NCBI GenBank assembly: GCA_947623455.1
Contig: OX392527.1
Span: forward strand, 11,280,001-11,344,000
From: Mimachlamys varia
Lineage: Eukaryota; Mollusca; Bivalvia; Pectinida; Pectinidae
DNA length: 64,000 nt
Direction of reading: 5' to 3'
This document shows, piece after piece, positions 3,325 through 51,198 of the stretch. The notes under the pieces were generated by a model. That model saw nothing but the letters and a program-made list of their open reading frames with translations. It did no database searches and was not told the DNA's origin. Each line of letters opens with the position of its first letter. Within the stretch, counting starts at the first letter, position 1. Position numbers and translations under genes: made by a program.

Positions 3325-4082
3325 TACGAGGGCTGATTGATAAGTTGTGAGCCTTGTATTGAAGAAGTTAAGCAGGAATGCCTCGCTATTCCCTGACTAT
3401 TTAATTAAGGCTGTGTACCCAAAAATTGTTGTCATGTGGTCAGTTTATCTGAGCCTCTTAGAGGCAGATCCTGCAAACTTTCTGCAAAATTTTGTGACTA
3501 TGGGTGAAACGTGGGTCCATCATTTCACCGCAGAGGCAAACAAAAACCAGTCCTAAAAATTGAAGCAACCTGGTTCACCCCCACCAAAGAAGGCAAAGAT
3601 TCTTTCATCAGCTGGAAAGGTTATGGCCTCGGTTTTCTGGGATGCTGATGATATTCTGATGGTAGATTATCTGCTTAAAGGGAAAACAATTATTGGCGCA
3701 TAATATGGATAATTTCTTCAGCGATTAGGAGAAAATATTAAACTTAAGCGCCGCGGAAAACTCAGAAAAATGGTGTGTTGTTCCACCAGGACTGTTGTTC
3801 ACAAGTCTGCCATTGCCGTGGCTGTAATAAAGTTTGTGGCTTTGGATTGATTGAGCATCCGCCTTATTTGCCTGACCTCGCTCCATCAGACTTTCATCTA
3901 TTTCCAAAATTAAAAAAAGACCATTTCCGGTACCCGCTTTCGGACAGATGAGTACGTCATACATGCTGTGGTGGACTTTCTGAATGGTCAAGAAAAGAGT
4001 TTTTTTTAAAAGAGGCATTGGGGCCCTTAAACATCGCTGGCAAAAGCGTAAAAATACTGGAGGTGATTATTTTGAAAACAAA
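3325..4082 (+). pseudogene. Decayed mariner-type transposase (mobile-element relic)
   Basis: Translation in shifting frames gives a clear mariner (IS630/Tc1/mariner superfamily) transposase fragment. In order: ADPANFLQNFVT then MGETWVHHFT at 3457-3530, PGSPPPKKAK near 3570-3598, GKVMASVFWDADDILMVDYL near 3616-3672, FHQD at 3782-3792, PYLPDLAPSDFHLFPKLKK near 3862-3915, FRTDEYVIHAVVDFLNGQEK near 3940-3990, and ALKHRWQK just before the 36-bp array. The motif that normally reads DETW is GETW here, so the first catalytic Asp is lost. The HQD and PSD aspartates are 99 nt apart, close to the usual D34D spacing once small deletions are allowed. In-frame stops and frameshifts break the frame repeatedly. 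TACGAGGGCTGATTGATAAG at 3325 looks like a left terminal repeat; the N-terminal DNA-binding half is missing and no right terminus was found. It is a dead element. Confidence 0.85.
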
Positions 4083-8365: not shown

Positions 8366-8396
8366 ATGGTGCGAATCAACCTCTCCTTGTCGGCAG
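8366..8396 (+). CDS. LU gene coding exon 1 (signal-peptide start)
   Basis: The exon encodes MVRINLSLSA plus one base, followed by the strong donor GGCAG|GTAAGT. The start has purine at -3 and G at +4 (AAGATGG) and an in-frame stop upstream at 8327. Its phase 1 end is exactly completed by the two bases TT that precede the next ATG in exon 2, turning a weak N-terminus into a typical signal peptide with a basic n-region. A protein starting at the exon 2 ATG (32554) is the alternative. The link to exon 2 crosses 24 kb and rests on phase and protein logic, without transcript evidence. Confidence 0.7.
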
Positions 8397-11300: not shown

Positions 11301-14300
11301 TTTGATATCAGATGAGACGTCAGAGAATGTTCAGACTTCCTGTACTTCGTTAAAATTGTTCGATAACATGCACTTTAAAAGCTACAAATAAAACAAAATG
11401 GCCGTCATAACTGCATGATTGGCTAATAAAAAACACCTTGAATATTGTTTGATACAACGACTTGTGATCAAAGCCTGCCGGGAACATCTGTGGCCGAGCG
11501 GCAGACGGGTGTCTCACTGATAAAGCTGTTTGTTTTAAAATGTTCCTCAGATGTAGAATCAATACCGACAAACAAGGATCCAGACTGTGGCGTACCTGTA
11601 TTCGTTGCTGGGTGACGATGATGGTAATTTCCATCGACGGGCATGTTGTACTTAGTTTTTTATTTGCGATCACAGTTAACATGTTGTTCGATTACGTGTA
11701 GATTGATTGTAGGATGTCACCCTGATCGTTCAGGAGCCGTCTGTCATCAATGGGTAGTGATACATGACAGATCCTAACTGATCGGAGATAAAATCACATT
11801 TAAAATCATGGTGGGAAGATTCTTGAATGAATGTGAGAACATTGTTTTCTTTATGACACAAAATTTGGACAAATGTTAACCTCTTCCTTACTGACAGTCT
11901 AACAGATTCTCAAGGGAATCCCTGACGACTTACTCTACTGACAGCGGAACAAAGTCTCAAAGGAACCACTGACGACAAACTGTATTGAAAGTGTAACAGA
12001 TTACCTAAGAAACCACTGACGACTTACTCTACTGACAGTGTAACAGGTTACCTAGGAAACCACTGACGACAAACTCTATTGACAGTGTAACAGGTTACCA
12101 AGGAAACCGCTGACGACTTACTCTACTGACAGTGTAACAGATTACCTAGGAAACAACTGACGACTTACTCTATTGACAATGTAACAGGTTACCAAGGAAA
12201 CCGCTGACGACTTACTCTACTGACAGTGTAACAGGTTACCTAGGAAACCACTGACGACTTACTCTACTGACAGTGTAACAGGTTACCTAGGAAACCACTG
12301 ACGACTTGCTCTACTGACAGTGTAACAGGTTACCTAGGAAACCACTGACGACTTGCTCTACTGACAGTGTAACAGGTTACCTAGGAAACCACTGACGACA
12401 AACTATATTGACAGTGTAACAGGTTACCTAGGAAACCACTGACGACTTGCTCTACTGACAGTGTAACAGGTTACCCAGGAAACCAGTGACGACTTACTCT
12501 ACTGACAGTGTAACAGGTTACCCAGGAAACCAGTGACGACTTACTCTACTGACAGTGTAACAGGTTACCCAGGAAACCAGTGACGACTTACTCTACTGAC
12601 AGTGTAACAGGTTACCAAGGAAACCAGTGACGACTTACTCTACTGACAGTGTAACAGGTTACCCAGGAAACCAGTGACGACTTACTCTACTGACAGTGTA
12701 ACAGGTTACCCAGGAAACCAGTGACGACTTGCTCTACTGACAGTGTAACAGGTTACCCAGGAAACCAGTGACGACTTACTCTACTGACAGTATAACAGGT
12801 TACCAAGGAAACCAGTGACGACTAACTCTACTGACAGTGTAACAGGTTACCCAGGAAACCACTGACGACCTGCTCTACCTACAGTGTAACAGGTTACCCA
12901 GGAAACCACTGACGACTAAATTAACTGACAGTGTAACAGATTACCCAGGAAACCACTGACGGCTTAATCTACTGACAGTGTAACAGGTTACCCAGGAAAC
13001 CAGTGACGACAAACTCTATTGACAGTGTAACAGATTACCCAGGAAACCACTGACAACTAAATCAAATGAGAGTGTAACAGGTTACCCAGGGAATCACTGA
13101 CGACTAAATCTATTGACAGTGTAACTGGTTACCCAGAAACCACTGACGACTAAATCTACTGACAGTGTAATAGGTTACCCAGGAAACCACTGACGACAAA
13201 CTCTATTGACAGTGTAATAGGTTACCCAGGAAAATACTGACGACAAACTCTACTTACAGTGTAACAGATTACCTAAGAAACCACTGACGACATTCTCTAC
13301 CGACAGTGTAACAGGTTATCCAGGAAACCACTGACGACTACCTCTACCGACAGTGTAACAGGTTACCAAGGAAACCGCTTACGACTTACTCTACCGACAG
13401 TGTAACAGGTTATCCAGGAAACCACTGACGACAACCTTTCCCGACAGTGTAACAGGTTACCCAGGAAACCACTGACGACAACCTTTACCGTCAGTGTAAC
13501 AGGCTACCCAGGAAACCAGTGACGACTAACTCTACCGACAGTGTAACAAGTTCTCTAGGGAACCGCTGACAGATATATGTAATCCTATGTGTACCAACCG
13601 TGTCATACAATGCCTGATAATTCTGGCATAATGATATACGCGGTACAGTAATTTGTTTCACTTCACGTTTATAATGAAGTTAATTATTTAACGGTTACCA
13701 TAGTTCCGATCAATTTTAATTTGAAACGTGACACAAAATATTGCGCATTTACCGAGTGTTCAGATGATGTAAGCGACATCATACATATTAATAGGACTCA
13801 CAATTGTGGACTTTCCGTATTCAGTAATCAATAACATACGAACCGCGTGTTTTTTATTAACGTTATGGCACGGAAATGATCAAATATAATCAACAAAGGA
13901 CAACATTCATATCAAGTAAGTCTACTTCGAAAGGACAGTATCAGTGTAATGTAGCGTAAACAAAGGGCAGCATCCCCACAACACAAGGACATTATCAGTG
14001 TAATGTAGTGTCAACAATGGACAACATCCTCACAAGGACATTATCAGTGTAGTGTAGTGTCAACAATGGACAACATCCTCACAAGGACATTATCAGTGTA
14101 ATGTAGTGTCAACAATGGACAACATCCTCACAAGGACATTATCAGTATAATGTGACGTCAACAATGGACAAGATCTTCACAACACAAGGACATTATCAGT
14201 ATAATGTTGTGTCAACAAAGGGCAACATCCGCACAACACAAGAACATTATCAGTTTAATGTAGCGTAAAAAATGGACAACATCCTCAAAACACAAGGGCA

Positions 14301-17300
14301 GTATCAGTATAATGTGGCGTCATTAATGGACAACATCCTCACAACACAAGGACAGTATCAGTATAATGTGGCGTCATTAATGAACAACATCCTTACAACA
14401 CAAGGACAGTATCAGTATAATGGAACGTCAACAATGGACAACATCCCCACAACACAAGGACAGTATCAGTATAATGTAGTGTCATTAATGGACAACATCC
14501 TCACAACACAAGGACAGTATCAATATAATGGAACGTCAACAATGGACAACATCCCCACAACACAAGGACAATATCAGTATAATGTGGCGTCATTAATGGA
14601 CAACATCCTCACAACACAAGGACAGTATCAGTATAATGGAACGTCAACAATGGACAACATCCCCACAACACAAGGACAATATCAGTATAATGTGGCGTCA
14701 TTAATGGACAACATCCTCACAACACAAGGACAGTATCAATATAATGGAACGTCAATCATGGACAACATCCTCACAACACAAGGACAGTTTCAGTATAATG
14801 TGGCGTCAACAAAGGGCAACATCCCGAAAACACAAAGACATTATCAGTATAATGTAGTGTCAACAATGTACAACATCCTCACAACACAAGGACAGTATCA
14901 GTATAATGTGGCGTCAACAATGGACAACATCCCCGACAACACAAGGACATTATCAGAATAATGGAACGTCAACAATGGACAACATCCTCACAACACAAGG
15001 ACAGTATCAGTATAATGTGGCATCAACAAAGGACAACATCCTCACAACACAAGGACAGTATCAGTATAATGTGGCGTCAACAAAGGGCAACTTCCCCCCA
15101 AAACAAGGACATTATCGGTATAATGTGGCATCAACAAAGGACAACATCCTCACAACACAAGGACAATATCAGTATAATGTGGCGTCATTAATGGACAACA
15201 TCCTCACAACACAAGGACAGTGTCAGTATAATGGAACGTCAACAATGGACAGCATCCTCACAGCACAAAGATACTACCAGTATAATGTAATGGCAACATG
15301 GACAACATCCCCACAAAACAAGGACAGTATCAGAATAATGGAACGTCAACAATGTACAGCATCCTCACAGCACAAGGACATTATCAGTATGATGTGGCGT
15401 CAACAAAGGGCAACATCCCGACAACACAAGGACAGTATCAGAATAATGGAACGTCAACAATGGACAACATCCTCACAACACAAGGACAGTATCAATATAA
15501 TGGAACGTCAATCATGGACAACATCCTCACAACACAAGGACAGTTTTAGTATAATGTGGCGTCAACAAAGGGCAACATCCCGACAACACAAGGACAGTAT
15601 CAGAATAATGGAACGTCAACAATGGACAACATCCTCACAACACAAGGACAGTATCAATATAATGGAACGTCAATCATGGACAACATCCTCACAACACAAG
15701 GACAGTTTTAGTATAATGTGGCGTCAACAAAGGACAACATCCTCACAACACAAGGACAGTATCAGTATAATGTAGTGTCAACAATGTACAACATCCCAAC
15801 AACACAAGGACATTATCAGTATAATGTAATGTCAACAATGTACAACATCCTCACAACACAAGGACAGTATCAGTATAATGTGGCGTCAACAAAGGGCAAC
15901 ATCCCGACAACACAAGGACATTATCAGTATAATGTGGCGTCAACAAAGGACAACATCCTCACAACACAAGGACAGTATCAGTATAATGTAGAATCAATAA
16001 TGGACAACATCCCGACAACACAAGGACAGTGTCAGTATAATGGAACGTAAACAATGGACAACATCCTCATAACACAAGGAAATTATCAGTATAATGTAGT
16101 GTCAACAATGTACAACATCCCCACAACACAAAGATACTACCAGTATAATGTAATGTCAACAATGGACAACATCCCCACAACATAAAGATACTACCAGTAT
16201 AATGTAATGTCAACAATGGACAACATCCCCACAACACAAAGCTACTACCAGTATAATGTAGCGTCAACAAAGGGTAACTTCCCCCCAAAACAAGGACAGT
16301 ACCAGTATATGTGGCGTCAACAATGGACAACATCCCAACAACACAAAGACATTATCAGTATAATGTAGTGTCAACAATGGACAACATTCCCACAACACAA
16401 AGATACTACAAGTATAATGTAATGTCAACAATGGACAACATCCTCACAACACAAGGACATTATCAGTATAATGTGGCGTCAACAATAGAAAAGATCTTCA
16501 CAACACAAGGACATTATCAGTATAATGTTGTGTCAACAAAGGGCAACATCCCCACAACACAAGAACATAATCAGTTTAATGTAGCGTCAAAAATGGACAA
16601 CATCCTCACAACACAAGGACAACATAAGTATAATATTGCGTCAACAAAGGGCAACATCCCGACAACACAAAGACATTATCAGTATAATGTGGCGATAACA
16701 ATGGACAACATCCTCACAACACAAGGACAGTACCAGTATAATGTGGCGTCAACAATAGAAAAGATCTTCACAACACAAGGACAGTATCAGTATAATGTGT
16801 CGTCAACAAAGGGCAAAATCCTCATAAAAGAAGGACAGTATCAGTATAATGGAACGTCAACAATGAATAAACTCCCCCCAACACAAGGACAGTATCAGTG
16901 TAATGTAGCGTCAACAATGGACAATATCCTTACAACACAAAGACAGTATCAGTATAATGTGTCGTCAACAAAGGGCAAAATCCTCATAAAAGAAGGACAG
17001 TATCAGTATAATGGAACGTCAACAATGGATAACATCCCTACAACACAAGGACATTATCAGTATAATGTGGCGTCAACAATGGAGAACATCCCCACAACAC
17101 AAAGACATTATAAGTATAATGTGGCGTCAACAAAGGGCAACATCCCCACAACACAAGAACATTATCAGCATAACGTAATGTCAACAATGTACAACATCCT
17201 CACAACACAAGGACATTATCAATATAATGTAGCGTCATCAAAGGACAACATCCCCACAACACAAAGACATTATCAGTATAATGTAGTGTCAACAATGGAC

Positions 17301-20300
17301 AACATCCCCACAACACAAAGATACTACCGGTATAATGTAATGTCAACAATGGACAACATCCTCACAACACAAATATACTACCAGTATAATGTAGCGTCAA
17401 CAAAGGGCAACTTCCCCCCAAAACAAGGACAGTACCAGTATATGTGGCGTCAACAATGGACAACATCCCCACAACACAAAGACATTATCAGTATAATGTA
17501 GTGTCAACAATGTACAACATCCCCACAACACAAAGATACTACAAGTATAATGTAATGTCAACAATGGACAACATCCTCACAACACAAGGACATTATCAGT
17601 ATAATGTGGCGTCAACAATAGAAAAGATCTTCACAACACAAGGACATTATCAGTATAATGTTGTGTCAACAAAGGGCAACATCCCCACAACACAAGAACA
17701 TAATCAGTTTAATGTAGCGTCAAAAATGGACAACATCCTCACAACACAAGGACAACATAAGTATAATGGGGCGTCAACAATGGACAATATCCTCACAACA
17801 CAAGGACATTACCAGTATAATATTGCGTCAACAAAGGGCAATATCCCCACAACACAAGAACATTATCAGCATAACGTAATGTCAACAATGTACAACATCC
17901 TCACAACACAAGGACATTATCAATATAATGTAGCGTCATCAAAGGACAACATCCCCACAACACAAAGACATTATCAGTATAATGTAGTGTCAACAATGGA
18001 CAACATCCCCACAACACAAAGATACTACCGGTATAATGTAATGTCAACAATGGACAACATCCTCACAACACAAATATACTACCAGTATAATGTAGCGTCA
18101 ACAAAGGGCAACTTCCCCCCAAAACAAGGACAGTACCAGTATATGTGGCGTCAACAAAGGACAACATCCCCACTACACAAAGACATTATCAGTATAATGT
18201 AGTGTCAACAATGTACAACATCCCCACAACACAAAGATACTACTAGTATAATGTAATGTCAACAATGGACAACATCCTCACAACACAAGGACATTATCAG
18301 TATAATGTGGCGTCAACAATAGAAAAGATCTTCACAACACAAGGACATTATCAGTATAATGTTGTGTCAACAAAGGGCAACATCCCCACAACACAAGAAC
18401 ATAATCAGTTTAATGTAGCGTCAAAAATGGACAACATCCTCACAACACAAGGACAACATAAGTATAATGGGGCGTCAACAATGGACAATATCCCCACAAC
18501 ACAAGGACATTACCAGTATAATATTGCGTCAACAAAGGGCAATATCCCCACAACACAGGACAGTATCAATATAATGGAACGCCAATCATGGACAACATCC
18601 CCACAACACAAAGACATTATCAGTATAATGTAGTGTCAACAATGTACAACATCCCCACAACACAAAGATACTACCAGTATAATGTAATGTCAACAATGGA
18701 CAACATCCTCACAACACAAGGACATTATCAGTATAATGTGGCGTCAACAATAGAAAAGATCTTCACAACACAAGGACATTATCAGTATAATGTGGCGTCA
18801 ACAAAGGGCAACATCCCGACAACACAAGGACAGTATCAGTATAATGTGGCGTCAACAAAGGGCAAAATCCTCATAAAACAAGGACAGTATCAGTATAATG
18901 TAACGTCAACAATGGACAACATCCTCACCACACAAGGACAGTATCAGTGTAATGTAACGTCAACAATGGACAACATCCTCACAACACAAGGACATTATCA
19001 GTATAATGTAGTGTCAACAATCGACAACATCCCAACAACACAAAGACATTATCAGTATAATGTAATGTCAACAATGTACAACATCCTCACAACACAAGGA
19101 CAGTATCAGTATAATGTGGCGTCAACAAAGGGCAACATCCCGACAACACAAGGACATTATCAGTATAATGTGGCGTCAACAAAGGACAACATCCTCACAA
19201 CACAAGGACAGTATCAGTATAATGTAGTGTCAATAATGGACAACATCCCGACAACACAAGGACAGTGTCAGTATAATGGAACGTAAACAATGGACGACAT
19301 CCTCATAACACAAGGAAATTATCAGTATAATGAAGTGTCAACAATGTACAACATCCCCACAACATAAAGATACTATCAGTATAATGTAGCGTCAACAATG
19401 GACAACATCCCCCCAAAACAAGGACAGTACCAGTATATGTGGCGTCAACAATGGACAACATCCCAACAACACAAAGACATTATCAGTATAATGTAGTGTC
19501 AACAATGGACAACATTCCCACAACACAAAGATACTACAAGTATAATGTGGCGTCAACAATAGAAAAGATCTTCACAACACAAGGACAGTATCAGTATAAT
19601 GTGTCGTCAACAAAGGGCAAAATCCTCATAAAAGAAGGACAGTATCAGTATAATGGAACGTGAACAATGAATAACATCCCCCCAACACAAGGACAGTATC
19701 AGTGTAATGTAGCGTCAACAATGGACAATATCCTCACAACACAAGGACAGTATCAGTATAATGTGTCGTCAACAAAGGGCAAAATCCTCATAAAAGAAGG
19801 ACAGTATCAGTATAATGGAACGTCAACAATGGATAACATCCCCCCAACACAAGGACATTATCAGTATAATGTGGCGTCAACAATGGAGAACATCCCCACA
19901 ACACAAAGACATAATAAGTATAATGTGGCGTCAACAAAGGGCAACATCCCCACAACACAAGAACATTATCAGCATAACGTAATGTCAACAATGTACAACA
20001 TCCTCACAACACAAGGACATTATCAATATAATGTAGCGTCATCAAAGGACAACATCCCCACAACACAAAGACATTATCAGTATAATGTAGTGTCAACAAT
20101 GGACAACATCCCCACAACACAAAAATACTACCAGTATAATGTAATGTCAACAATGGACAACATCCTCACAACACAAATATACTACCAGTATAATGTAGCG
20201 TCAACAAAGGGCAACTTCCCCCCAAAACAAGGACAGTACCAGTATATGTGGCGTCAACAATGGACAACATCCCCACAACACAAAGACATTATCAGTATAA

Positions 20301-41300: not shown

Positions 41301-44300
41301 TACATCCATGTAAGTCATACAGTTGATGTACACTGAATTTAGTCCCAGCTCGGACCATACATCCATGTAAGTCATACACCTGCTGTACACTGAATTTAGT
41401 CCCAGCTCGGACCATACATCCATGTAAGTCATACAGTTGATGTACACTGAAGTTAGTCCCAGCTCGGACCATACATCCATGTAAGTCATACAGTTGATGT
41501 ACACTGAATTGATTCCCAGCTCGGACCATACATCCATGTAAGTCATACACCTGCTGTACACTGAAGTAAGTCCCAGCTCGGACCATACATCCATGTAAGT
41601 CATACAGTTGATGTACATTGAAGTTAGTCCCAGCTTGGACCATACATCCATGTATGTCATACAGTTGATGTACACTGAATTTAGTCCCAGCCCGGACCAT
41701 ACATCCATGTAAGTCATACACCTGATGTACACTGAATTTAGTCCCAGCTCGGACCATACATCCATGTTAGTCATACAGCTGCTGTACACTGAATTTAGTC
41801 CCAGCCCGGACCATACATCCGTGTAAGTCATACAGCTGATGTACACTGAATTTAGTCCCAGCTCGGACCATACATCCATGTAAGTCATACAGCTGCTGTA
41901 CACTGAATTTAGTCCCAGCCCGGACCATACATCCATGTAAGTCATACAGTTGATGTACACTGAATTTAGTCCCAGCTTGGACCATACATCCATGTAAGTC
42001 ATACAGTTGATGTACACTGAATTTAGTCCCAGCTCGGACCATACATCCATGTAAGTCATACAGTTGATGTACACTGAATTTAGTCCCAGCCCGGACCATA
42101 CATCCATGTAAGTCATACAGTTGATGTACACTGAAGTAAGTCCCAATTCGGACCATACATCCATGTAAGTCATACAGTTGATGTACACTGAAGTAAGTCC
42201 CAATTCGGACCATACATCCATGTAAGTCATACAGTTGATGTACACTGAATTTAGTCCCAGCCCGGACCATACATCCATGTAAGTCATACAGTTGATGTAC
42301 ACTGAAGTAAGTCCCAATTCGGACCATACATCCATGTAAGTCATACAGTTGATGTACACTGAATTTAGTCCCAGCTCGGACCATACATCCATGTAAGTCA
42401 TACACCTGCTGTACACTGAATTTAGTCCCAGCTCGGACCATACATCCATGTAAGTCATACAGCTGATGTACACTGAATTTAGTCCCAGCTCGGACCATAC
42501 ATCCATGTAAGTCATACAGCTGCTGTACACTGAAGTAAGTCCCAGCTCGGACCATACATCCATGTAAGTCATACAGTTGATGTACACTGAAGTTAGTCCC
42601 AGCTTGGACCATACATCCATGTAAGTCATACAGTTGATGTACACTGAATTTAGTCCCAGCCCGGACCATACATCCATGTAAGTCATACACCTGCTGTACA
42701 CTGAATTTAGTCCCAGCTCGGACCATACATCCATGTTAGTCATACAGCTGCTGTACACTGAATTTAGTCCCAGCCCGGACCATACATCCATGTAAGTCAT
42801 ACAGCTGCTGTACACTGAATTTAGTCCCAGCTCGGACCATACATCCATGTAAGTCATACAGCTGCTGTACACTGAATTTAGTCCCAGCCCGGACCATACA
42901 TTCATGTAAGTCATACAGTTGATGTACACTGAATTTAGTCCCAGCTTGGACCATACATCCATGTAAGTCATACAGTTGATGTACACTGAATTTAGTCCCA
43001 GCTCGGACCATACATCCATGTAAGTCATACAGTTGATGTACACTGAATTTAGTCCCAGCCCGGACCATACATCCATGTAAGTCATACAGTTGATGTACAC
43101 TGAAGTAAGTCCCAATTCGGACCATACATCCATGTAAGTCATACAGTTGATGTACACTGAAGTAAGTCCCAATTCGGACCATACATCCATGTAAGTCATA
43201 CAGTTGATGTACACTGAATTTAGTCCCAGCCCGGACCATACATCCATGTAAGTCATACAGTTGATGTACACTGAAGTAAGTCCCAATTCGGACCATACAT
43301 CCATGTAAGTCATACAGTTGATGTACACTGAATTTAGTCCCAGCCCGGACCATACATCCATGTAAGTCATACACCTGCTGTACACTGAATTTAGTCCCAG
43401 CTCGGACCATACATCCATGTAAGTCATACAGCTGATGTACACTGAATTTAGTCCCAGCTCGGACCATACATCCATGTAAGTCATACACCTGCTGTACACT
43501 GAAGTTAGTCCCAGCTCGGACCATACATCCATGTAAGTCATACACCTGCTGTACACTGAATTTAGTCCCAGCCCGGACCATACATCCATGTAAGTCATAC
43601 AGCTGCTGTACACTGAATTTAGTCCCAGCTCGGACCATACATCCATGTAAGTCATACAGTTGATGTACACTGAATTTAGTCCCAGCCCGGACCATACATC
43701 CATGTAAGTCATACAGTTGATGTACACTGAATTTAGTCCCTGCTCGGACCATACATCCATGTAAGTCATACAGTTGATGTACACTGAATTTAGTCCCAGC
43801 TCGGACCATACATCCATGTAAGTCATACAGCTGTTGTACACTGAAGTAAGTCCCAGCTCAGACCATACATCCATATAAGTCACACATCTGATGTACACTG
43901 AAGTTAGATGAATTCTTCCATAAACTTACTCCAAATTGATTCCATGTTGATGGTGACAAATATATCGGAGTGAAATGAATTAGCCATGTAAAGTCCCTCT
44001 CCTTTGTGAGAAGATGTTTATAGGCCAGATATAAGGCAGTGTACAGAAGGATGGGTTTATGCTGACTGAGATATCGCTTTTTATGTTTGTTTTATCACGT
44101 TTGTAATCCCGTAAAAAATGTGTGAATTCCCTATGCTTTTATTCGGTTTATATATATAGTGAATATTACTGTCATCCTTATAAGGTAATTATATATATAA
44201 TGTGCATGTGATTTTGATGTCCCTAGACTAATACGTCGCTTCAGTTAACTTATCGTTGGGTTCAGGGTGGTGTTAACGATGGGTTCAGGGTGGTGTTAAC

Positions 44301-47300
44301 GATGGGTTCAGGGTGGTGTTAACGTTGGGTTCAGGGTGGTGTTAACGTTGGGTTCAGGGTGGTGTTAACGTTGGGTTCAGGGTGGTGTTAACGTTGGGTT
44401 CAGGGTGGTGTTAACGATGGGTTCAGGGTGGTGTTAACGATGTGCCATACTATATGTGATAATAACGTCAATGGTTATACAGTTGGGTAATTATAATAGA
44501 AATTAATCTGAATCTTGGACAATCACACTCCATATTGATCTTTATATAAAAGTGTATAGAGAAATCTTTATATAAAAGTGTATAGAGAAATCTTTATATA
44601 AAAGTGTATAGAGAAATCTTTATATAAAAGTGTATAGAGAAATCTTTTGATAAAGGGTTTATGGAATAATGTGCATGTTTAAATATCGATTATTTCCTAT
44701 ATGACTTGTTTTGTTTTTTTGTATCGGGCGTCACTCGCATGGAAAGTCATTGTTCTACGTTTACCACCAATAAATATAGCAACCTATGCTCTTTAGAACC
44801 TTCATAAATTGTACATAAGGTGGCATTGGAAACTTAAACATTCATAATAAGTTTGTGTATAGTATGTTTATTAGAGTTTTATATTCATAACGGGTTTTTG
44901 TGTATAGTATGTTTATTAGAGTTTTATATTCATAACGGGTTTTTGTGCATAGTATGTTTAATTTATAATTAGTTTTTGTATGATATGTTTATTGGAATTG
45001 TATATTTATAATTAGTTGCTGCATTGTATGCTTATTAGAATCGTATATTGGGGAGAATTATGCTGGAAACAATATCAAAGTTATGATATTTAATATCAAA
45101 TTGTCATGAAAGTGATAACAAGAACATACATTGACATCTGAACACACTTTTATTTGTATTTGGATCACCTACACCACAGTCATATAAAAATAAAATATAG
45201 AGATTGATACAAATATATCAATCAATATAATTTCACTTGATTATTTAACAATTGAAGATGGCTGCAATGCCCCATGACTTAATAGATTTAACAATTAATA
45301 GAGTAAACACAATTAACACAGTTTAACCATTTATTTTGTTTATTTACGAAATCATAAATCCAAAGGTAAACGAGGTAAATAGCGTAAATGCGAAGCGTGT
45401 GTGTTACGTTCATTAATTAACGCAATGCGTGTTACGTTCACTATTTAACAGTGTGCATGTGTGTGATATGTTCATTAATTACAGTAACACAGTATATGTG
45501 GACGTTCATTAATAAACAGTGTGTATGTTACGTTCTTTAAAAAACACAGCGTGTATGTTACATTCATTAATAAACCCAGTGTGTGTGTAACGTTCATTAA
45601 TAAACCCAGTGTGTGTGTAACGTTCATTAATAAACCCAGTGTGTGCGTGAAACGTTCATTAAGAAACAGCGTGTGTGTAACGTTCATTAATAAACAGTGT
45701 GTGTGTAACGTTCATAAATAAAAAATGCATGTGTTACGTTCATTAATTAACAGTGTGTGTGTTACGTTCATTAATAAACAGTGTGTGTGTAACGTTCATT
45801 AATAAATAGTGTGTGTGTAACGTTCATTAATAAACAGTGTGTGTGTAACGTTCATTAATAAACCCAGTGTGTGTGTTACGTTCATTAATAATCCCAGTGT
45901 GTGTGTAACGTTCATTAATAAACAGTGTGTGTGTTACGTTCATTAATAAACAGTGTGTGTGTAACGTTCATTAATTAACAGTGTGTGTGTAACGTTCATT
46001 AATTAACACAGTGTGTGTGTAACGTTCATTAATAAACCGTGTGTGTGTAATGTTCATTAATAAACAGTGTGTGTGTAACGTTCATTAATTAACAGTGTGT
46101 GTGTTACGTTCATTAATTAACACAGTGTGTGTGTAACGTTCATTAATAAACCGTGTGTGTGTGTCGTTCATTAATAAACGGTGTGTATGTTACGTTCATT
46201 AATTAACACATTGTGTATGTTACGTGTACGTTCATAAACGTACGAAACAATCCTTGAAACTGGATTAATTTTTTTTTAGAGATGCAAAACATTTTTTTCT
46301 TGACTTCAAATTTGAGATTACAGAAGAACAATTTTATGAAATTGGTATGGCGTTAATGTATCGGTAACTACACGCTGGAGTTGTTGCATAAACAGGTTGA
46401 TCTTGATTTCGCTGCACGCTGAGATTCTTTACAATAATCGATCACTTTTCGAATAGATACATGTCAGAAAAACGCAGTAGATCGTTGGAAAACAAACCAA
46501 ATGTAAAAGAACTATAATCAAATTTTTCAATATGGTTTTTCTTTTTTTTTGTTATCAGCAACTACGACAGAACAAACTACAACCATGGCTTCGTACATTG
46601 TAAGTATCATTGTTGTGTGATCATTACATACTGATGACTAACATATAATACAAGTGACGTTTACATTACAGCTTTTAATACACTAACAGTAAATATCAGT
46701 GACGTTTCCATTACAGTGTATAATACACTAACAGTAAAAACCAGTGACGTGTACATAACAGTGTATAATACACTAACAGTAAATATCAGTGACGTTTCCA
46801 TTACAGTGTATAATACACTAACAGTGTATACCAGTGACGTTTACATTACAGTGTATAACACACTAACAGTGAATACCAGTGCCGTTTACATTACCGTGTA
46901 TAATACACTAACAGTAAATACCAGTGACGTTTACATTACAGTGTATAACACACTAACATTAGATACCAGAGATGTGTACATTACAGAGTAAAATACACTA
47001 ACAGTGTATACCAGTGACGTTTTCATTACATTGTATAATACACTAACAGTAAATACCAGTGACACTAACATTAGATACCAGAGATGTGTACATAACAGTG
47101 TATACTACACTAACAGTGAATACCAGTGCCGTTTACATTACCGTGTATAATACACTAACAGTGTATACCAGTGACGTTTACATTACAGTGTATAACACAC
47201 TTACAGTGAATACAAGTGACGTTTACATTACAGTGTATAACACACTAACAGTGTATACCAGTGACGTTTACATTACAGTATAATAACACACTAACAGTGT

Positions 47301-50300
47301 ATACCAGTGACGTTTACATTACAGTGTATAACACATTAGCAGTGTATACCAGTGACGTTTACATTACAGTGTATAACACACTAGCAGTGAATACCAGTGA
47401 CGTTTACATTACAGTGTATAACACACTTACAGTGTATACCAGTGACGTTTACATTACAATGTATAACACACTAACAGTGTATACCAGTGACGTTTACATT
47501 ACAGTGTATAACACATTAGCAGTGTATACCAGTGACGTTTACATTACCGTGTATAACACACTAACAGTGAATACCAGTGACGTTTACATTACAGTGTATA
47601 ACACACTAACAGTAAATACCAGTGACGTTTACATTACAGTGTGTAACACACTAACAGTGAATATCAGTGATGTGTACATTGCAGAGTATAATACACTAAC
47701 AGTAAATACCAGTGACGTTTACATTACATTGTGTAACACACTAACAGTGAATATCAGTGATGTGTACATTGCAGAGTTTAATACACTAACATTGTATACC
47801 AGTGACGTTTACATTACAGTGTATAATACACTAACAGTGAATACCAGTGACGTTTACATTACATTGTATAATACACTAACATTAGATACCAGAGATGTGT
47901 ACATTACAGTGTATTATACACTAACAGTGAATACCAGTGACGTTAACATTACAGTGTATAACACACTAACAGTGTATACCAGAGACGTTTACATTACAGT
48001 GTATACTACACTAACAGTGTATACCAGAGACGTTTACATTACAGTGTATAACACACTAACAGTGTATACCAGTGACGTTTACATTACAGTGTATAAAACA
48101 CTAACAGTGAATACCAGTGACGTGTACATTACAGTTTATAATACACTAACAGTGAATACCAGTGACGTTTACATTACAGTGTATAACACACTAACAGTGT
48201 ATACCAGTGACGTTTACATTACAGTGTATAATACACTAACAGTGAATACCAGTGACGTTTACATTACAGTGTATAACACATTAACAGTGAATACCAGTGA
48301 GGTTTACATTACAGTGTATAACACATTAACAGTGAATACCAGTGAGGTTTACATTACAGTGTATAACACACTAACATTAGATACCAATGACGTTTACATT
48401 ACAGTGTATAATACACTAACAGTAAATACCAGTGACGTGTACATTTTGGTGTATAGCACACCTACAACATATAATACGTATGTTAGTTTGCTATATGATG
48501 TGTTTAGGTCTGTTATATGATGTATTTGTTAGCCTACTATTTGATGTGTTTTGAGTCTGCTTTATAATGTGGTGTAGGCCTGCTACAGTATATGATTAGT
48601 TTGTTAGGCTGTTATATGTTGTGTTTGTAGGCCTGCTATATGTTGTGTTTGTAGGCCTGCTATATGATGTGTTTGTAAGTCTGCTATATGTTGTGTTTGT
48701 AAGCCTGCTATATGTTGTGTTTGTAAGTCTGCTATATGTTGTGTTTGTAGGCCTGCTATATGTTGTGTTTGTTAGTCTGCTATATGTTGTGTTTGTAAGT
48801 CTGCTATATGTTGTGTTTGTAGGCCTGCTATATGTTGTGTTTGTAAGTCTGCTATATGTTGTGTTTGTAGGCCTGCTATATGGTGTGTTTGTAAGTCTGC
48901 TATATGTTGTGTTTGCAGGCCTGCTATATGGTGTGTTTGTAAGTCTGCTATATGGTGTGTTTGTAAGTCTGCTATATGATGTGTTTGTAAGTCTGCTATA
49001 TGGTGTGTTTGTAAGTCTGCTATATGTTGTGTTTGCAGGCCTGCTATATGGTGTGTTTGTAAGTCTGCTATATGGTGTGTTTGTAAGTCTGCTATATGAT
49101 GTGTTTGTAAGTCTGCTATATGGTGTGTTTGTAAGTCTGCTATATGTTGTGTTTGTAAGCCTGCTATATGATGTGTTTGTTATCCTGCTATATGATGTGG
49201 CTGTTATCCTGCTATATGATGTGGTTGTTATCCTGCTATATGCTGTGGTTGTTATTCTGCTATATGATGTTGTTGTTATCCTGCTATATGGTTTGGTTGT
49301 TATCCTGCTATATGGTGTGGTTGTTATCCTGCTATATGATGTGGCTGTTATCCTGCTATATGGTGTGGTTGTTAGCCTGCTATATGTTGTGGTTGTTATC
49401 CTGCTATATGGTGTGGTTGTTATCCTGCTATATGGTGTGGCTGTTATCCTGCTATATGATGAGGCTGTTATCCTGCTATATGATGTGGCTGTTATCCTGC
49501 TATATGGTGTGGTTGTTATCCTGCTATATGGTGTGGTTGTTATCCTGCTATATGGTGTGGTTGTTATCCGGCTATATGGTGTGGTTGTTATCCTGCTATA
49601 TGGTGTGGTTGTTATCCTGCTATATGGTGTGGTTGTTATCCGGCTATATGATGTGGTTGTTATCCTGCTATATGATGTGCTTGTAATCCTGTTTCATTGT
49701 ATATGATGCGTTTGACGAATAGTTATTTAGTACAATACCTTCGTTTTCGAAAGCTCGCAAGTTAACTTTTTCAATTCCTGTTTGTGTACAAAACAAACTT
49801 AGAATATATCATTCATACAAAGCTGGTGAATCTTATTCCTAATACGTTACTTGATATGTTGTAGACCTGTTACTCTGGATCCTGTATGAATGAGAGCTGC
49901 CTTACCAACATCAACGACAAGTGCAACAGCAGCATGTATTGCAAGGTGAGTTAATACATTGACATTTAGAAAATGGAGGGTGGGGGGGGGGTAGTTAGCT
50001 CGTCCGAACTGACGTCCGTAGACGAACTTGGACCGGCTATGTATTCGCTCAGTTTTCAACGGATCTTTTTATCAATTTGCGGGACTAGCCAGTGGAGTAT
50101 GGAGATGTGCCCCTGAAGTACATGTAACTTTACGTTTTCGACCCGTTTCATAAAGTTTTTCGCCTTTGATATAAAACAATGAACACACTTTTTGTTCAGC
50201 GATGCATTCGGCCAGTTTACAACAATTCACATAAACATTTTGTGGAAATAGCTAGTATACTATATATGGAGATGTGCTCCCTGAAATAACATTGCATTTT

Positions 50301-51198
50301 TACCCTTTACTTACTTAACAGACATTCATTTCCCTTGTATATATATAAAAATATAAAAAAAAAAAAAAACCATTTTGTCTGGCTCTGCAACATCTCAGTT
50401 TGTAGCATTTTCTTTTAGTGGAAAGGGTTATGTCCCCTGAAGTAGTCCTTTTGAAAGAGTTGTGCACATTTTATTAATGTTCCATCTACTTGGGGGGGGG
50501 ATTAATTGGATATAACTATACAAGAATTGAGTTATGTTTAGAAACCGAAATAAGTTGCAGCAATATTACAATGTAGCATTGATGTCAGGGTTTGGCAATA
50601 TCCCTAGGGACTTAATTTTCAATTGATCTTAAAAACAGTTGAGATACCCACCAATTAACCAAAGTTTTAATTATACCGATATGCTTCAATGACCATGATT
50701 TCCTTGATATCAATGTACTCTGGTGAGCGATAAGGCTCTCTGGGCATCTTGTTTAATATAACACAAACCCTTACACGGGATCAAAACGAGACTTGAAAGT
50801 GACTGACAGAGGTGTACAGCCTTAACTTCAGATAGTGTACAACAGTTTGCTTTAAGCTTTATATAGATGGTACAAGGAGTTAAAAAGTTAATATTTGCTC
50901 ATTCAAAGATCGACGTGGAAGGTTCTCAGATTAGTTATAGAAATTTGTTTTTGTTTATCTACAGATTGAAAAAATGTCAAACAGCACAAGCACGTCGTAC
51001 TATCTGAGCTGCGCTGATACCTCCTGCACCAGCGTGAGTAACAGTGTATACTGTTGTAAGACAGCTGATTGTAACCGCGATGAAAGCATGCTCAAGTCGA
51101 ATGGATGTGGTCACCCCGCCAGCTTCGGAATGATGAACATCATCGCTATCATCTCCACGATCCTCGTCACTCGTCTTGGAGTCTGTGTAGGGGAGTAG
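8366..51198 (+). CDS. Ly6/uPAR (LU, three-finger) domain protein with Ser/Thr-rich stalk, 190 aa, eight coding exons
   Basis: Joined exons: 8366-8396, 32552-32623, 37665-37688, 39177-39194, 40318-40389, 46559-46599, 49865-49945, 50965-51198. The reading frame stays open across all seven GT-AG junctions. Residues 1-27 form a signal peptide (Arg3, then an Ala/Val/Leu/Met core; likely cleavage at SSA|T). Residues 28-86 are a Ser/Thr/Glu-rich, mucin-like stalk. Residues 88-150 hold exactly ten cysteines (88, 93, 98, 106, 112, 129, 134, 143, 144, 149), ending CC-KTAD-CN as in LU domains. N95, N107 and N119 lie in N-glycosylation sequons. After C149 comes a short linker with small residues near 158-160, then a hydrophobic run at about 167-182, consistent with a GPI-attachment signal or a membrane segment; Arg183 and the polar last residues are not ideal for GPI. 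Start choice: AAGATGG context with an in-frame TAG at 8327. LU proteins act at the cell surface or as secreted ligands and modulators; the partner here is unknown. Confidence 0.85.
8397..9137. other. Start of LU gene intron 1, unique sequence
   Basis: AT-rich unique intronic sequence after the exon 1 donor. No further exon or repeat recognised before the dispersed element at 9138. Confidence 0.45.
9138..9480. mobile_element. Molluscan-type MITE-like element in intron 1
   Basis: It starts with CCCCGCAACGAAGTTAGCGG, has a GTCCGTCCGTCCGTCC tract, and then ACGGATCTTTTTAAAATTTT and GTGCTCCCTGAAGTAAATTAGC. It ends near GGGCGGGGTATGAGTTGGCC. The internal motifs recur in diverged form at 49995-50330. 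No protein is encoded. Exact termini and target duplication were not established; family recognition is from memory. Confidence 0.6.
9481..10284. other. Intron 1 unique sequence
   Basis: No exon, RNA gene or repeat that I can support. Open frames at 9551-9733 and 9994-10212 show no family features and lack flanking splice sites in a compatible phase. Confidence 0.4.
10285..11110. repeat. Degenerate 59-bp minisatellite with 177-bp higher-order period
   Basis: About 14 units share GGACGTCACCGATT, TGTGTGCCGG and AGAAACACTTCGCTACAATG; GGACGTC occurs at 10351 and 10410. A nearly identical block starting GGACGTCATCGATTAAGTTG recurs at 10410 and 10587, that is 3 x 59 = 177 bp, so the array also grows in trimers. 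The unit is not a multiple of three. Confidence 0.88.
11111..11883. other. Intron 1 unique sequence, possible tRNA-derived remnant
   Basis: Mostly unique. TGGCCGAGCGG near 11493 fits a Pol III A-box of a tRNA-Leu/Ser type, but no convincing B-box follows at the right distance, so at most it is a SINE remnant. The minus-strand frame at 11350-11682 has no recognisable domain. Confidence 0.3.
11884..13572. repeat. 47-bp minisatellite, about 36 copies
   Basis: The unit includes CTACTGACAGTGTAACAGGT, TACCCAGGAAACCACTGACG and ACTTACT. Central copies (12200-12850) are nearly identical, while both edges are diverged, a pattern typical of internal expansion. Not a multiple of three, and no open frame persists. 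Confidence 0.94.
13573..13933. other. Short unique spacer between the 47-bp and 54-bp arrays
   Basis: Unique AT-rich intron 1 sequence of about 360 bp. Nothing gene-like was recognised. Confidence 0.4.
13934..31955. repeat. 18-kb array of a 54-bp minisatellite with higher-order structure
   Basis: The unit includes CAACATCCTCACAACACAAG, GACAGTATCAGTATAATG and TGGCGTCAACAATGG, present in roughly 330 copies inside intron 1. Variant units (for example atagaaaagatcttcacaac, agggcaacttccccccaaaa, caaagatactaccagtataa) recur in fixed order. Blocks repeat at offsets of 216 and 324 bp (4 and 6 units), 1133 bp (16311 versus 17444), and about 1941-2103 bp (18256, 20359, 22408; 18588, 20691; 19439, 21380). 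Because 54 = 3 x 18, frames rich in Gln, Asn, Tyr and Thr stay open for up to about 400 codons, but stops (GCGTAAA, GGAACGTAAAC) and frameshifts interrupt them throughout and the antisense frame is also often open, so I read it as non-coding. Confidence 0.96.
31956..32305. other. Intron 1 unique sequence before the foldback
   Basis: Unique AT-rich sequence between the end of the 54-bp array and the large inverted repeat. No exon recognised. Confidence 0.4.
32327..32444. repeat. Long inverted repeat (foldback) about 110 bp upstream of exon 2
   Basis: The left arm (32327-32374, with GTTTATCGGGGGATAACTAC) pairs with the right arm (32391-32444, with GTAGTTATCCCCCGATAAC). The right arm carries a 6-bp insertion (ATGTAC). 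The loop is 16 nt. Weaker complementarity extends outward to about 32306 and 32460. It may be a foldback or MITE-type element; in a transcript it would form a long hairpin just before the exon 2 acceptor. Confidence 0.85.
32552..32623 (+). CDS. LU gene coding exon 2 (signal-peptide core and start of stalk)
   Basis: Acceptor TTTACTGTGTTTTCAG and donor GCGT|GTAAGT flank 72 nt (phase 1 in, phase 1 out). After a split Val codon it encodes MTAVAVALMFVSLSSATSSS then TEA: the hydrophobic signal core, the likely cleavage point after SSA, and the first Ser/Thr residues. It contains its own ATG, so translation from an alternative first exon is possible. Confidence 0.85.
32624..32895. other. Start of intron 2, unique
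   Basis: About 270 bp of unique sequence between the exon 2 donor and the first 32-bp array. Nothing recognised. Confidence 0.4.
32896..34022. repeat. 32-bp minisatellite A in intron 2, about 35 copies
   Basis: The unit is AGGAGGTGTATTGAACATCA followed by AGCCCCTCTAGC, repeating every 32 bp. Variants alternate gtgTATTGAACATC, gtgTAATGAACACC and gtgAATTGAACATC. It stops abruptly next to an unrelated array with the same 32-bp period. Confidence 0.94.
34028..37427. repeat. 32/33-bp minisatellite B in intron 2, about 105 copies, one CCAAT-type motif per unit
   Basis: The unit is TAATGTACCGTGGTAATTGT followed by GTCCTCATTGGT; a 33-bp form has TAGATGTACC. Nearly every unit has TCATTGGTTA, the inverse of a CCAAT box. 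Early copies carry ATCGTGTTCTCATTGG, later ones mostly ATTGTGTCCTCATTGG. A block with caataaattgggttgatgtaccgtgc recurs at about 34348 and 35321, showing segmental duplication within the array. Confidence 0.94.
37428..37664. other. End of intron 2, unique
   Basis: Unique sequence running into the exon 3 acceptor, including a T-rich stretch GCATTTTTCTTTGCAG immediately before the exon. Confidence 0.5.
37665..37688 (+). CDS. LU gene coding microexon 3 (24 nt, stalk)
   Basis: Flanked by ATTTTTCTTTGCAG and CTG|GTAAGT. With the incoming T it encodes S-TSEASST and leaves one base, so it is phase 1 to phase 1 and can be skipped without a frame change. The Ser/Thr/Glu composition matches its neighbours. 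The exact match of phase, splice signals and composition is the evidence; a transcript would settle it. Confidence 0.75.
37997..38052. promoter_or_regulatory. Cluster of four TGACGT (CRE/ATF-like) motifs
   Basis: TGACGTGT (37997), TGACGTCA (38020-38027), TGACGTCT (38034-38041) and TGACGTCA (38045-38052) lie within 56 bp. Two are perfect palindromic cAMP-response elements as known for CREB/ATF factors. Intronic enhancer function is inference only; the cluster may instead be a small degenerate tandem repeat. Confidence 0.35.
38730..38850. repeat. 60-bp tandem duplication
   Basis: Two copies of a 60/61-bp unit carrying CTTCAAATGTCTGTTTTATC and TTGTAAATGAT, followed by a third partial start (gtagc). 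Copies differ at a few positions. Confidence 0.85.
38866..39020. mobile_element. Small MITE-like element, 155 bp
   Basis: The left end GTACCCCATTTTACTGCGTA and right end TACGTAGTAAAATGAGGTAC are inverse complements with two mismatches over about 22 bp. The interior is G/C-richer than its surroundings (ccagctggcagcgggcc). No coding capacity; no clear target duplication was seen. Confidence 0.6.
39177..39194 (+). CDS. LU gene coding microexon 4 (18 nt, stalk)
   Basis: Flanked by TTTTTGCTTTTCAG and CCA|GTAAGT. With the incoming G it encodes V-TVEST and leaves one base: phase 1 to phase 1, six residues. It is among the shortest exons one would accept without RNA data; support comes from an excellent polypyrimidine tract, a consensus donor and exact frame continuity to exon 5. 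Confidence 0.7.
39195..40317. other. Intron 4: hosts an 8-bp-TSD transposon, otherwise unique
   Basis: Apart from the element at 39325-39772 this is AT-rich unique sequence. Short frames over 39212-39652 lie within the element and have no protein features. Confidence 0.6.
39317..39780. mobile_element. Non-autonomous DNA transposon with 8-bp target-site duplication
   Basis: ACTGGTGT occurs at 39317-39324 and 39773-39780, directly flanking perfect 12-bp inverted repeats GTTGCAACGCAA (39325-39336) and TTGCGTTGCAAC (39761-39772). The 448-bp interior is made of CGCAATTTGTAATA-like sub-repeats and encodes no transposase. An 8-bp duplication points to hAT or another 8-bp-TSD superfamily; the terminal sequence does not decide which. 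The perfect duplication suggests fairly recent insertion. Confidence 0.85.
40318..40389 (+). CDS. LU gene coding exon 5 (main Ser-rich stalk)
   Basis: Acceptor TTTTCCCTGCAAACACGATAG and donor CCC|GTAAGT enclose 72 nt, phase 1 to phase 1. It encodes SVSSSTDPGSTQSSVSASSS then ES, about 60% Ser/Thr, typical of an O-glycosylated stalk. The acceptor's pyrimidine tract is interrupted, so use of the next AG (three bases into the exon) was considered, but it shifts the frame out of the Ser/Thr-rich reading. Confidence 0.78.
40390..40885. other. Start of intron 5, unique
   Basis: Unique sequence after the exon 5 donor. The open frame at 40529-40723 shows no recognisable domain. Confidence 0.45.
40886..43905. 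repeat. 57-bp minisatellite in intron 5, about 53 copies, 17-unit higher-order repeat
   Basis: The unit includes CCATACATCCATGTAAGTCA, TACAGTTGATGTACACTGAA and TTTAGTCCCAGCTCGGA. Nearly every copy holds CATGTAAGTCAT on the gene's sense strand, close to a 5' splice site. A variant copy with CATGTTAGTCAT recurs at 41766 and 42735, a 969-bp offset equal to 17 x 57, so a 17-unit block was duplicated. Because 57 = 3 x 19, two minus-strand frames stay open: one for about 1008 codons (40872-43898, 19-residue period with TYMDVWSELGLNSVY) and another with only two breaks. Both being open argues that this reflects the unit and not selection on a protein. Confidence 0.95.
43906..44253. other. Intron 5 unique spacer
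   Basis: Unique sequence between the 57-bp and 23-bp arrays. Nothing recognised. Confidence 0.4.
44254..44441. repeat. 23-bp minisatellite, about 8 copies
   Basis: The unit is GGGTTCAGGGTGGTGTTAAC plus GAT or GTT, almost perfectly conserved. G-rich on the + strand. Confidence 0.93.
44538..44655. repeat. 26-bp minisatellite, about 4.5 copies
   Basis: Unit CTTTATATAAAAGTGTATAG plus AGAAAT, nearly identical copies. AT-rich. Confidence 0.92.
44838..45060. repeat. Degenerate repeat of about 50 bp, about 4 copies
   Basis: Copies share TATTCATAACGGGTTTTTGT and ATAGTATGTTTATTAGA; the first two complete copies are close and later ones diverged. Confidence 0.75.
45061..45374. other. Intron 5 unique AT-rich spacer
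   Basis: AT-rich unique sequence with no exon or repeat recognised. Confidence 0.4.
45375..46245. repeat. 26-30-bp minisatellite, about 30 copies
   Basis: The unit is GTAACGTTCATTAATAAACA plus a GTGTGTGT tail of variable length; alternative forms have AATTAACA, AAACCCAG and GTTACG. Length variation lies mainly in the GT run. AACGTT is present in most units. Confidence 0.92.
46246..46558. other. End of intron 5, unique
   Basis: Unique sequence ending in a strong polypyrimidine tract (TTTTTCTTTTTTTTTGTTATCAG) immediately before exon 6. Confidence 0.5.
46559..46599 (+). CDS. LU gene coding exon 6 (Thr-rich end of stalk)
   Basis: A strong acceptor (T-run then TTATCAG) and donor CATT|GTAAGT enclose 41 nt. 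It completes a Pro codon and encodes TTTEQTTTMASYI, ending in phase 0. It is the only exon that changes phase (1 to 0) and joins the stalk to the cysteine-rich domain. Confidence 0.82.
46650..48465. repeat. 45-bp minisatellite in intron 6, about 40 copies
   Basis: The unit includes CAGTGTATAACACACTAACA, GTGAATACCAGTGACGTTTA and CATTA. Each copy has CTAAC and a TTTACATTACAG segment, resembling a branch point and an acceptor. The 15-residue translated period gives a 419-codon open frame at 47261-48520, an artefact of the 45-bp unit. Some early copies are truncated or rearranged (47055-47090). Confidence 0.94.
48555..49705. repeat. 24-bp minisatellite in intron 6, two subfamilies, about 47 copies
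   Basis: The first half (to about 49185) repeats GTTTGTAAGTCTGCTATATG plus TTGT or GTGT; the second half repeats GTTGTTATCCTGCTATATGG plus TGTG. The switch is sharp, near 49190. The 8-residue translated period is hydrophobic (FVSLLYVV, VVILLYGV) and looks like a membrane protein, but is a simple by-product of a 24-bp unit. Confidence 0.94.
49865..49945 (+). CDS. LU gene coding exon 7 (first half of LU domain, Cys 1-5)
   Basis: Acceptor TTGATATGTTGTAG and donor GCAAG|GTGAGT enclose 81 nt in phase 0. It encodes TCYSGSCMNESCLTNINDKC then NSSMYCK, with five of the ten domain cysteines and two N-glycosylation sequons (NES, NSS). It is the only exon here with a GTGAGT donor. A two-exon split of an LU domain is common in animal Ly6 genes. 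Confidence 0.85.
49946..50964. other. Intron 7 with a diverged molluscan element
   Basis: The segment 49995-50330 contains ACGGATCTTTTTATCAATTT, GAGATGTGCCCCTGAAGTAC and then a second run GAGATGTGCTCCCTGAAATAA, matching the interior of the element at 9138-9480 in two tandem diverged pieces. The rest is unique, with short G-runs at about 49980 and 50491. Confidence 0.6.
50965..51198 (+). CDS. LU gene terminal coding exon 8 (second half of LU domain and C-terminal anchor)
   Basis: The acceptor TTTGTTTATCTACAG starts a 77-codon exon ending in TAG. It holds cysteines 6-10 with the LU signature CCKTADCN, an NST sequon, then a linker (KSNGCGHPAS) and a hydrophobic segment with FGMMNIIAIISTILVT. 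Two further cysteines (161 and 187) lie outside the domain. The tail fits a GPI signal with omega around residues 158-160, or a single membrane span. Confidence 0.9.
   Translation: MEKMSNSTSTSYYLSCADTSCTSVSNSVYCCKTADCNRDESMLKSNGCGHPASFGMMNIIAIISTILVTRLGVCVGE

What the first reader, a model, noticed from the sequence alone, without database searches (positions are those of the whole stretch)
8366..51198. A 190-residue LU-domain surface protein spread over 43 kb of minisatellite DNA
Eight small exons join in frame across seven GT-AG introns to give a signal peptide, Ser/Thr stalk, a ten-cysteine LU domain with CC-x4-CN, and a hydrophobic C-terminus. Coding sequence is 573 nt of 42,833. About three quarters of the gene is tandem repeat. 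Exon finders can miss it because most exons are under 85 nt and the arrays provide larger spurious open frames.
Basis: partly seen in the sequence, partly recalled or inferred. Interest (0 to 1): 0.75.

Follow-up and report, generated by a model that had tools for sequence, protein, structure and literature searches.

The report
Scallop Ly6-type surface protein gene
A small, probably real gene for a cysteine-rich cell-surface protein of the Ly6 kind lies in eight small exons across 43 kb of a scallop chromosome whose introns are mostly tandem repeats; repeat-filled DNA is common in scallops, so this is a likely new member of a known kind rather than a new type of system.

Summary
The eight-exon chain is there as described: 573 nt, 190 residues, seven GT-AG introns, no exon inside an array, 76.3% of the span tandem repeat. 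It is probably a real gene: exon 1 has the best of 4,979 donor sites, Ser/Thr-rich symmetric exon candidates in 22 kb of unique DNA occur only in this chain, and a two-exon ten-cysteine LU pattern came up in 0 of 60 random 64-kb sequences. No RNA could be tested. The window is Mimachlamys varia chromosome 1. Best reading: a secreted, probably GPI-anchored LU-type protein. Two corrections: the Ser/Thr segment precedes the LU domain, so with a C-terminal anchor it is a distal extension, not a stalk; and repeat-filled DNA is ordinary here (mean 27% in 18 distant 10-kb samples; published scallops). Against: no Pfam LU match although CD59 matches, a C-x4-C start, a phase-0 upstream intron, and no homologue or paralogue found.

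The parts
8366..8396 (+). Exon 1 (31 nt): start codon and first residues of the signal peptide, MVRINLSLSA; donor CAG|GTAAGT
   Evidence: best-scoring of 4,979 GT sites in the window and the only in-frame ATG-to-donor candidate with donor score 5 or more upstream of exon 2
32552..32623 (+). Exon 2 (72 nt, phase 1-1): hydrophobic core of signal peptide and start of Ser/Thr region; holds a second in-frame ATG at 32554
   Evidence: hydropathy peak
37665..37688 (+). Exon 3 (24 nt microexon, phase 1-1): STSEASSTV, Ser/Thr region
   Evidence: highest combined splice score of the scan
39177..39194 (+). Exon 4 (18 nt microexon, phase 1-1): VTVESTT, Ser/Thr region
40318..40389 (+). Exon 5 (72 nt, phase 1-1): TSVSSSTDPGSTQSSVSASSSSESP, Ser/Thr region
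   Evidence: weakest acceptor of the chain
46559..46599 (+). Exon 6 (41 nt, phase 1 in, 0 out): end of Ser/Thr region, PTTTEQTTTMASYI
49865..49945 (+). Exon 7 (81 nt, phase 0-0): first half of LU-type domain, cysteines 1-5
50965..51198 (+). Exon 8 (234 nt with stop): second half of LU-type domain, cysteines 6-10, CCKTADCN, then SNGCGHP and hydrophobic C-terminus (possible GPI signal)
13931..31952 (.). 54-bp minisatellite array, about 334 copies, in intron 1
32896..37428 (.). Two adjoining 32-bp arrays in intron 2
40887..43907 (.). 57-bp array, 53 copies, in intron 5; leaves a 1,008-aa frame open on the minus strand
46637..49691 (.). 45-bp and 24-bp arrays filling most of intron 6

Best explanation
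A real scallop gene (M. varia chromosome 1), with no close copy found in its genome, encodes a secreted precursor that is trimmed to a small surface protein: an N-terminal, weakly acidic Ser/Thr-rich segment (likely O-glycosylated and extended), then one ten-cysteine LU-type domain, then a C-terminal signal that is probably swapped for a GPI anchor. The LU domain would sit next to the membrane and bind a protein partner with its loops, while the Ser/Thr segment projects outward and tunes access, as the disordered extension of GPIHBP1 does by another chemistry. Exons 3, 4 and 5 are each a multiple of three with phase-1 introns on both sides, so skipping any of them would shorten the extension without breaking the frame. 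Shown: the exon chain, frame, splice signals, cysteine plan. Inferred: transcription, cleavage, O-glycans, GPI anchor, fold, binding, alternative splicing.
For: Exact eight-exon chain with GT-AG sites. Exon 1 donor ranks 1 and exon 7 donor 2 of 4,979 GT sites. In 21,947 nt of unique DNA per strand, symmetric phase-1 exon candidates number 8 on plus and 3 on minus; Ser/Thr at least 40% in 4 of 8 and 0 of 3, and the 4 are exons 3-5 and an alternative-acceptor form of exon 2; thresholds were set after seeing these exons' scores. 8 of 8 exons are GC-richer than their flanks. Ten cysteines with Asn after the tenth, 63 residues from Cys88 to Asn150, within the 60-90 residues, ten cysteines and invariant Asn given in PMC6600238 (passages). 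The domain is split over two exons between cysteines 5 and 6. The two hydropathy peaks lie at the two ends. Residues 28-83: 36 of 56 Ser or Thr, 6 acidic, 0 basic.
Against: No RNA evidence was available. No Pfam LU match, with CD59 as a passing control. No protein homologue, no PDB relative, no paralogue better than E about 2 in the own genome. Similarity to CD59 rests on the cysteines: 37 of 5,000 full shuffles score as high, but 393 of 5,000 when cysteines are held in place, and the best alignment does not pair cysteines 6 and 7. The N-terminal LxCxxC motif is absent and the intron before the domain is phase 0. Exons 4, 5 and 6 fall below the stricter thresholds. The hydrophobic tail contains Arg and ends in Glu, not typical for a GPI signal (my reading).
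Confidence: 0.7

Rival explanations
1. The gene is real but coding begins in exon 2: exon 1 is untranslated or belongs elsewhere, so the coding span is about 19 kb and not 43 kb.
For: Exon 2 has an in-frame ATG two bases after its acceptor, followed by the hydrophobic stretch. Intron 1 is 24 kb and mostly one array.
Against: Exon 1 has the best donor in the window and is the only in-frame candidate of its strength in the upstream 32.5 kb; its ATG has A at -3 and G at +4. Its residues add a positive charge ahead of the hydrophobic stretch.
Confidence: 0.2
2. Same gene, but the C-terminus is not a GPI signal: the product is secreted, or held by a membrane-spanning tail at about residues 167-186.
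For: The tail contains Arg and ends VCVGE; two extra cysteines (161, 187) lie outside the LU set. 11 of 48 human LU genes encode secreted single-domain forms (PMC6600238, passage).
Against: SNGC, then GHPAS, then a hydrophobic stretch resembles omega site, spacer and tail; it is the second hydropathy peak of the protein. No predictor was run.
Confidence: 0.3
3. The chain is a chance assembly or a decayed gene: exons 7 and 8 are a relic, and the small upstream exons are coincidences.
For: No homologue, paralogue or profile match in the searches made; exons 4-6 have middling splice scores.
Against: No stop or frame break in eight exons; LU pair in 0 of 60 random replicas; Ser/Thr-rich symmetric exon candidates only in this chain.
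Confidence: 0.1

Closest known systems
GPIHBP1 (human LU protein with disordered N-terminal extension)
   Same: An extra exon ahead of the LU exon pair encodes a disordered N-terminal extension of a glycolipid-anchored LU protein (PMC6600238, passages)
   Different: GPIHBP1's extension is strongly acidic and comes from one extra exon; here it is Ser/Thr-rich, weakly acidic and spread over exons 2-6
SP-10 / ACRV1
   Same: N-terminal disordered extension before LU whose length varies by alternative splicing (figure legend in PMC6600238)
   Different: SP-10 is listed as secreted; here a hydrophobic tail is present and splicing variation is only predicted
CD59 and typical single-LU GPI proteins
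   Same: Ten cysteines, CC-x4-CN, LU split over two exons, tail after CN
   Different: Typical gene has three exons, a C-x2-C start and no Ser/Thr extension; CD59 matches Pfam LU models, this protein does not
CC-x-[S/T]-D-x-CN places elsewhere in the M. varia genome
   Same: CC-x4-CN ending; a phase-0 acceptor is the best-scoring one in 14 of the 20 places read
   Different: In 13 of 20 the best acceptor opens an exon whose second residue is a cysteine 13-30 residues ahead of CC, so the intron lies elsewhere than here; some frames continue into further cysteine modules
Repeat-rich scallop genomes (Chlamys farreri; A. pleuronectes)
   Same: Tandem repeats are the largest repeat class: 11.3% and 21.7% (PMC5700196 and PMC10225492, passages)
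   Different: My sample of M. varia gives a mean of about 27%, and this gene 76%

Membership tests
LU (Ly6/uPAR) domain | 60-90 residues with ten cysteines | tested here: met
   63 residues Cys88 to Asn150, ten cysteines, gaps 4,4,7,5,16,4,8,0,4; definition from a passage of PMC6600238
LU (Ly6/uPAR) domain | Asn directly after the tenth cysteine; CC-x4-CN | tested here: met
   CCKTADCN
LU (Ly6/uPAR) domain | N-terminal L-x-C-x-x-C motif (described as well conserved in human and mouse members, PMC4839075) | tested here: not met
   I-T-C-Y-S-G-S-C: Ile in place of Leu, four residues in place of two between Cys1 and Cys2
LU (Ly6/uPAR) domain | Profile match (Pfam PF00021 or kin) | tested here: not met
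   No LU family listed with max E 10; CD59 control 27.3 bits for PF00021, cut-off 24.8
LU (Ly6/uPAR) domain | Domain split over two exons | tested here: met
   Exons 7 and 8; inferred from sequence, no RNA
LU (Ly6/uPAR) domain | Inner intron at the tip of loop 2 | tested here: inconclusive
   Intron 7 lies one residue after Cys5, at the start of the 16-residue stretch between Cys5 and Cys6, not at its middle; the fold is unknown
LU (Ly6/uPAR) domain | Exon pair generally flanked by phase-1 introns | tested here: not met
   Intron 6, just before the domain, is phase 0; phase-1 introns lie further upstream
LU (Ly6/uPAR) domain | Disulfides 1-5, 2-3, 4-6, 7-8, 9-10 and three-finger fold | not tested
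   No structure job was sent: the folding tool takes proteins that the DNA gives letter for letter, and this one is spliced
GPI-anchored proteins | Omega site, spacer, hydrophobic tail replaced by GPI | tested here: inconclusive
   Hydropathy peak at residues 167-186 after SNGC; no predictor or assay
Secreted/surface proteins | N-terminal signal peptide | tested here: inconclusive
   Highest hydropathy windows at residues 8-24, then SLSSA-TSSS; no SignalP run

The most novel reading that the evidence does not exclude
The gene is a length-adjustable LU surface protein: three frame-neutral exons (24, 18 and 72 nt) let the cell choose among eight lengths of a glycosylated outward extension (up to 38 residues' difference), with splicing choices influenced by the large, changeable minisatellite arrays in the introns.
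Probability: 0.12. Interest if true: 0.55.

Novelty: new member of a known kind. Interest (0 to 1): 0.3.

Why it matters
It suggests that small surface-protein genes in repeat-rich bivalve genomes can escape profile-based and exon-length-based annotation: 573 coding nt in 43 kb, two exons under 25 nt, no profile match. LU proteins take part in complement regulation, fertilisation and signalling in other animals (PMC6600238, passage), so a scallop member without close kin is a reasonable candidate for study; nothing here shows its role.

Tried and rejected
Looked for homologues and paralogues: none by protein database, PDB or own genome. The two weak genome hits are noise in my judgement: L002 (E 2.8) holds no CC-x3-6-CN and the match in L005 (E 1.95) contains a stop. 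The own-genome PF00021 search found nothing but rang in none of its 14 controls either, so it says nothing. Considered that a large array ORF is the real gene: rejected, the long frames listed are mostly repeats, and the 57-bp array is open in two registers. Checked for RNA families and tRNAs: none. Considered the arrays as the real novelty: weakened by background samples and published scallop figures. Genome pattern CC-x-[S/T]-D-x-CN: 48 matches against 35 for the reversed pattern, so the count alone is weak; 20 of 48, chosen by hand for spread over chromosomes, were read, the other 28 were not. Searches for the array units elsewhere in the genome did not complete.

Full report
Where it is. 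The window is G000:C1:11280001-11344000. C1 has 65,822,114 bases, the exact length of the longest scaffold of the Mimachlamys varia assembly in PMC11252643, whose chromosome 2 (64.71 Mb) also fits C2 (passages). So this is the variegated scallop, chromosome 1.

The observation. I rebuilt the chain from the splice contexts: eight exons, 573 nt, 190 residues, one terminal stop, seven GT-AG introns with phases 1,1,1,1,1,0,0, and no exon base inside an array. Tandem repeats cover 76.3% of the 42,833-nt span and 66% of the window.

Is it more than chance? The donor of exon 1 ranks first, and that of exon 7 second, of 4,979 GT sites; the other splice sites of the chain fall in the best 0.08% to 8.5% of their kind. 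Among ATG-to-donor stretches in frame with exon 2 and with donor score 5 or more, exon 1 is the only one in the first 32.5 kb. A first, stricter scan of the gene's unique DNA gave seven exon candidates: exons 2, 3 and 7, and four overlapping forms at 32751-32818 that are not in the chain; exons 4, 5 and 6 fell below its thresholds. In the unique DNA of the whole window I then counted open candidates flanked by AG and GT with phase 1 on both sides: 8 on the plus strand and 3 on the minus; Ser/Thr at 40% or more in 4 of 8 and 0 of 3; the four are exons 3, 4, 5 and a variant of exon 2. 8 of 8 exons are GC-richer than their flanks. I take the gene as real with about 0.85 probability; RNA was not available.

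What the protein is. Residues 1-27 look like a signal peptide; residues 28-83 hold 36 Ser/Thr of 56, 6 acidic and no basic residues; residues 88-150 hold ten cysteines in the order C-x4-C-x4-C-x7-C-x5-C-x16-C-x4-C-x8-CC-x4-CN; residues 151-190 end in a hydrophobic stretch. The review PMC6600238 (passages) defines the LU domain by 60-90 residues, ten cysteines and an Asn after the tenth, places the inner intron at the tip of loop 2, and describes the usual gene as a signal exon plus two LU exons generally flanked by phase-1 introns. Size, cysteine number, Asn and the two-exon split are met. The inner intron lies between cysteines 5 and 6 but only one residue after Cys5, so nearer the start of that stretch than its middle. 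The L-x-C-x-x-C start given in PMC4839075 (passages) is not met, nor is the phase-1 flank. Pfam lists no LU family with max E 10, whereas CD59 scores 27.3 bits for PF00021. Similarity to CD59 is carried by the cysteines. I therefore say LU-type by cysteine plan and gene anatomy, with the fold untested.

Not a stalk. Because the order is signal, Ser/Thr, LU, tail, a C-terminal anchor would put the LU domain at the membrane and the Ser/Thr segment outside. PMC6600238 says that GPIHBP1 and SP-10 are the only human proteins with an extra exon for a disordered N-terminal segment ahead of LU, that GPIHBP1's raises the association rate with its ligand more than 250-fold, and that SP-10's varies in length by alternative splicing (passages). 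The scallop protein has the same layout with different chemistry. Exons 3, 4 and 5 (24, 18, 72 nt) are frame-neutral cassettes, so length variation is possible; that it happens is a prediction.

Relatives. No candidate in the protein database shares three five-residue words with residues 84-190; I do not know how many bivalve proteins it holds. In the own genome the gene itself matches; the two other hits have E 2.8 and 1.95 and I take them as noise. A pattern for CC-x-[S/T]-D-x-CN, which this gene (CCKTADCN) does not fit, gave 48 places against 35 for the reversed pattern; some form clusters (six within 63 kb on C5, four within 53 kb on C6). I read 20 of the 48, chosen by hand: the best-scoring acceptor is phase 0 in 14, in another phase in 3, and absent in 3; in 13 it opens an exon whose second residue is a cysteine 13-30 residues ahead of CC. 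So other LU-like exons probably exist in this genome, but with another intron place, and they do not confirm the exon plan of this gene.

Repeats. TRF over 10-kb pieces: 18 pieces far from the locus average 26.8% (standard error 7, median 16%), 1 of 18 above 76.3% and another at 76.1%; eight pieces within about 1 Mb, four of them adjoining the window, range from 4% to 95%. Published: tandem repeats 11.3% in C. farreri (PMC5700196) and 21.7% in A. pleuronectes (PMC10225492), each the largest repeat class; in P. maximus simple repeats are 0.99% with 16.7% unclassified elements (PMC7191990). These papers were seen as passages. The gene sits in a repeat-rich stretch of a repeat-rich genome.

Verdict. 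The finding is accurate; the likely meaning is a new LU-type surface-protein gene, probably fast-evolving since no relative was found, with an outward Ser/Thr extension. In two listings (20 of 38 papers; 12 of 118) I saw no paper on LU proteins of bivalves, which is a thin search.

Noticed in passing
32751-32813 +: Another open, symmetric phase-1 exon candidate (63 nt) in intron 2 with good splice scores, in frame with exons 2 and 3 but not Ser/Thr-rich; could be a missed cassette exon or a decoy.
   Followed up: partly
3344-3948 +: Broken mariner-type transposase pieces in different frames; together they match SETMAR/Mos1 chains at E 7e-6 to 3e-4.
   Followed up: partly
61618-62261 and 63357-64000 +: Direct duplication of at least 644 bp at 99.8% identity, around a 41-bp array; the second copy runs to the window's edge.
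   Followed up: no
59665-60024 -: 120-residue acidic open frame ending ...NVGFQLETTEV, possibly the last exon of a gene that converges on this one; no Pfam match and no convincing PDB match.
   Followed up: partly
32302-32469: Inverted repeat (75% identity over 178 aligned positions) just upstream of exon 2, possibly a small mobile element.
   Followed up: no
40872-43898 -: 57-bp array leaves a 1,008-aa frame open and long open frames in a second register; likely a repeat effect but a trap for annotation.
   Followed up: partly
9238-9380 and 50055-50190 +: Dispersed repeat, 71% identical, in introns 1 and 7.
   Followed up: no
L035, L036 (G000 C5 about 27.98-27.99 Mb): CC-x4-CN exons followed in the same frame by a further cysteine module (CDD...C...C...C), suggesting multi-domain proteins with LU-like and ShK-like parts (the ShK label is from memory).
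   Followed up: no
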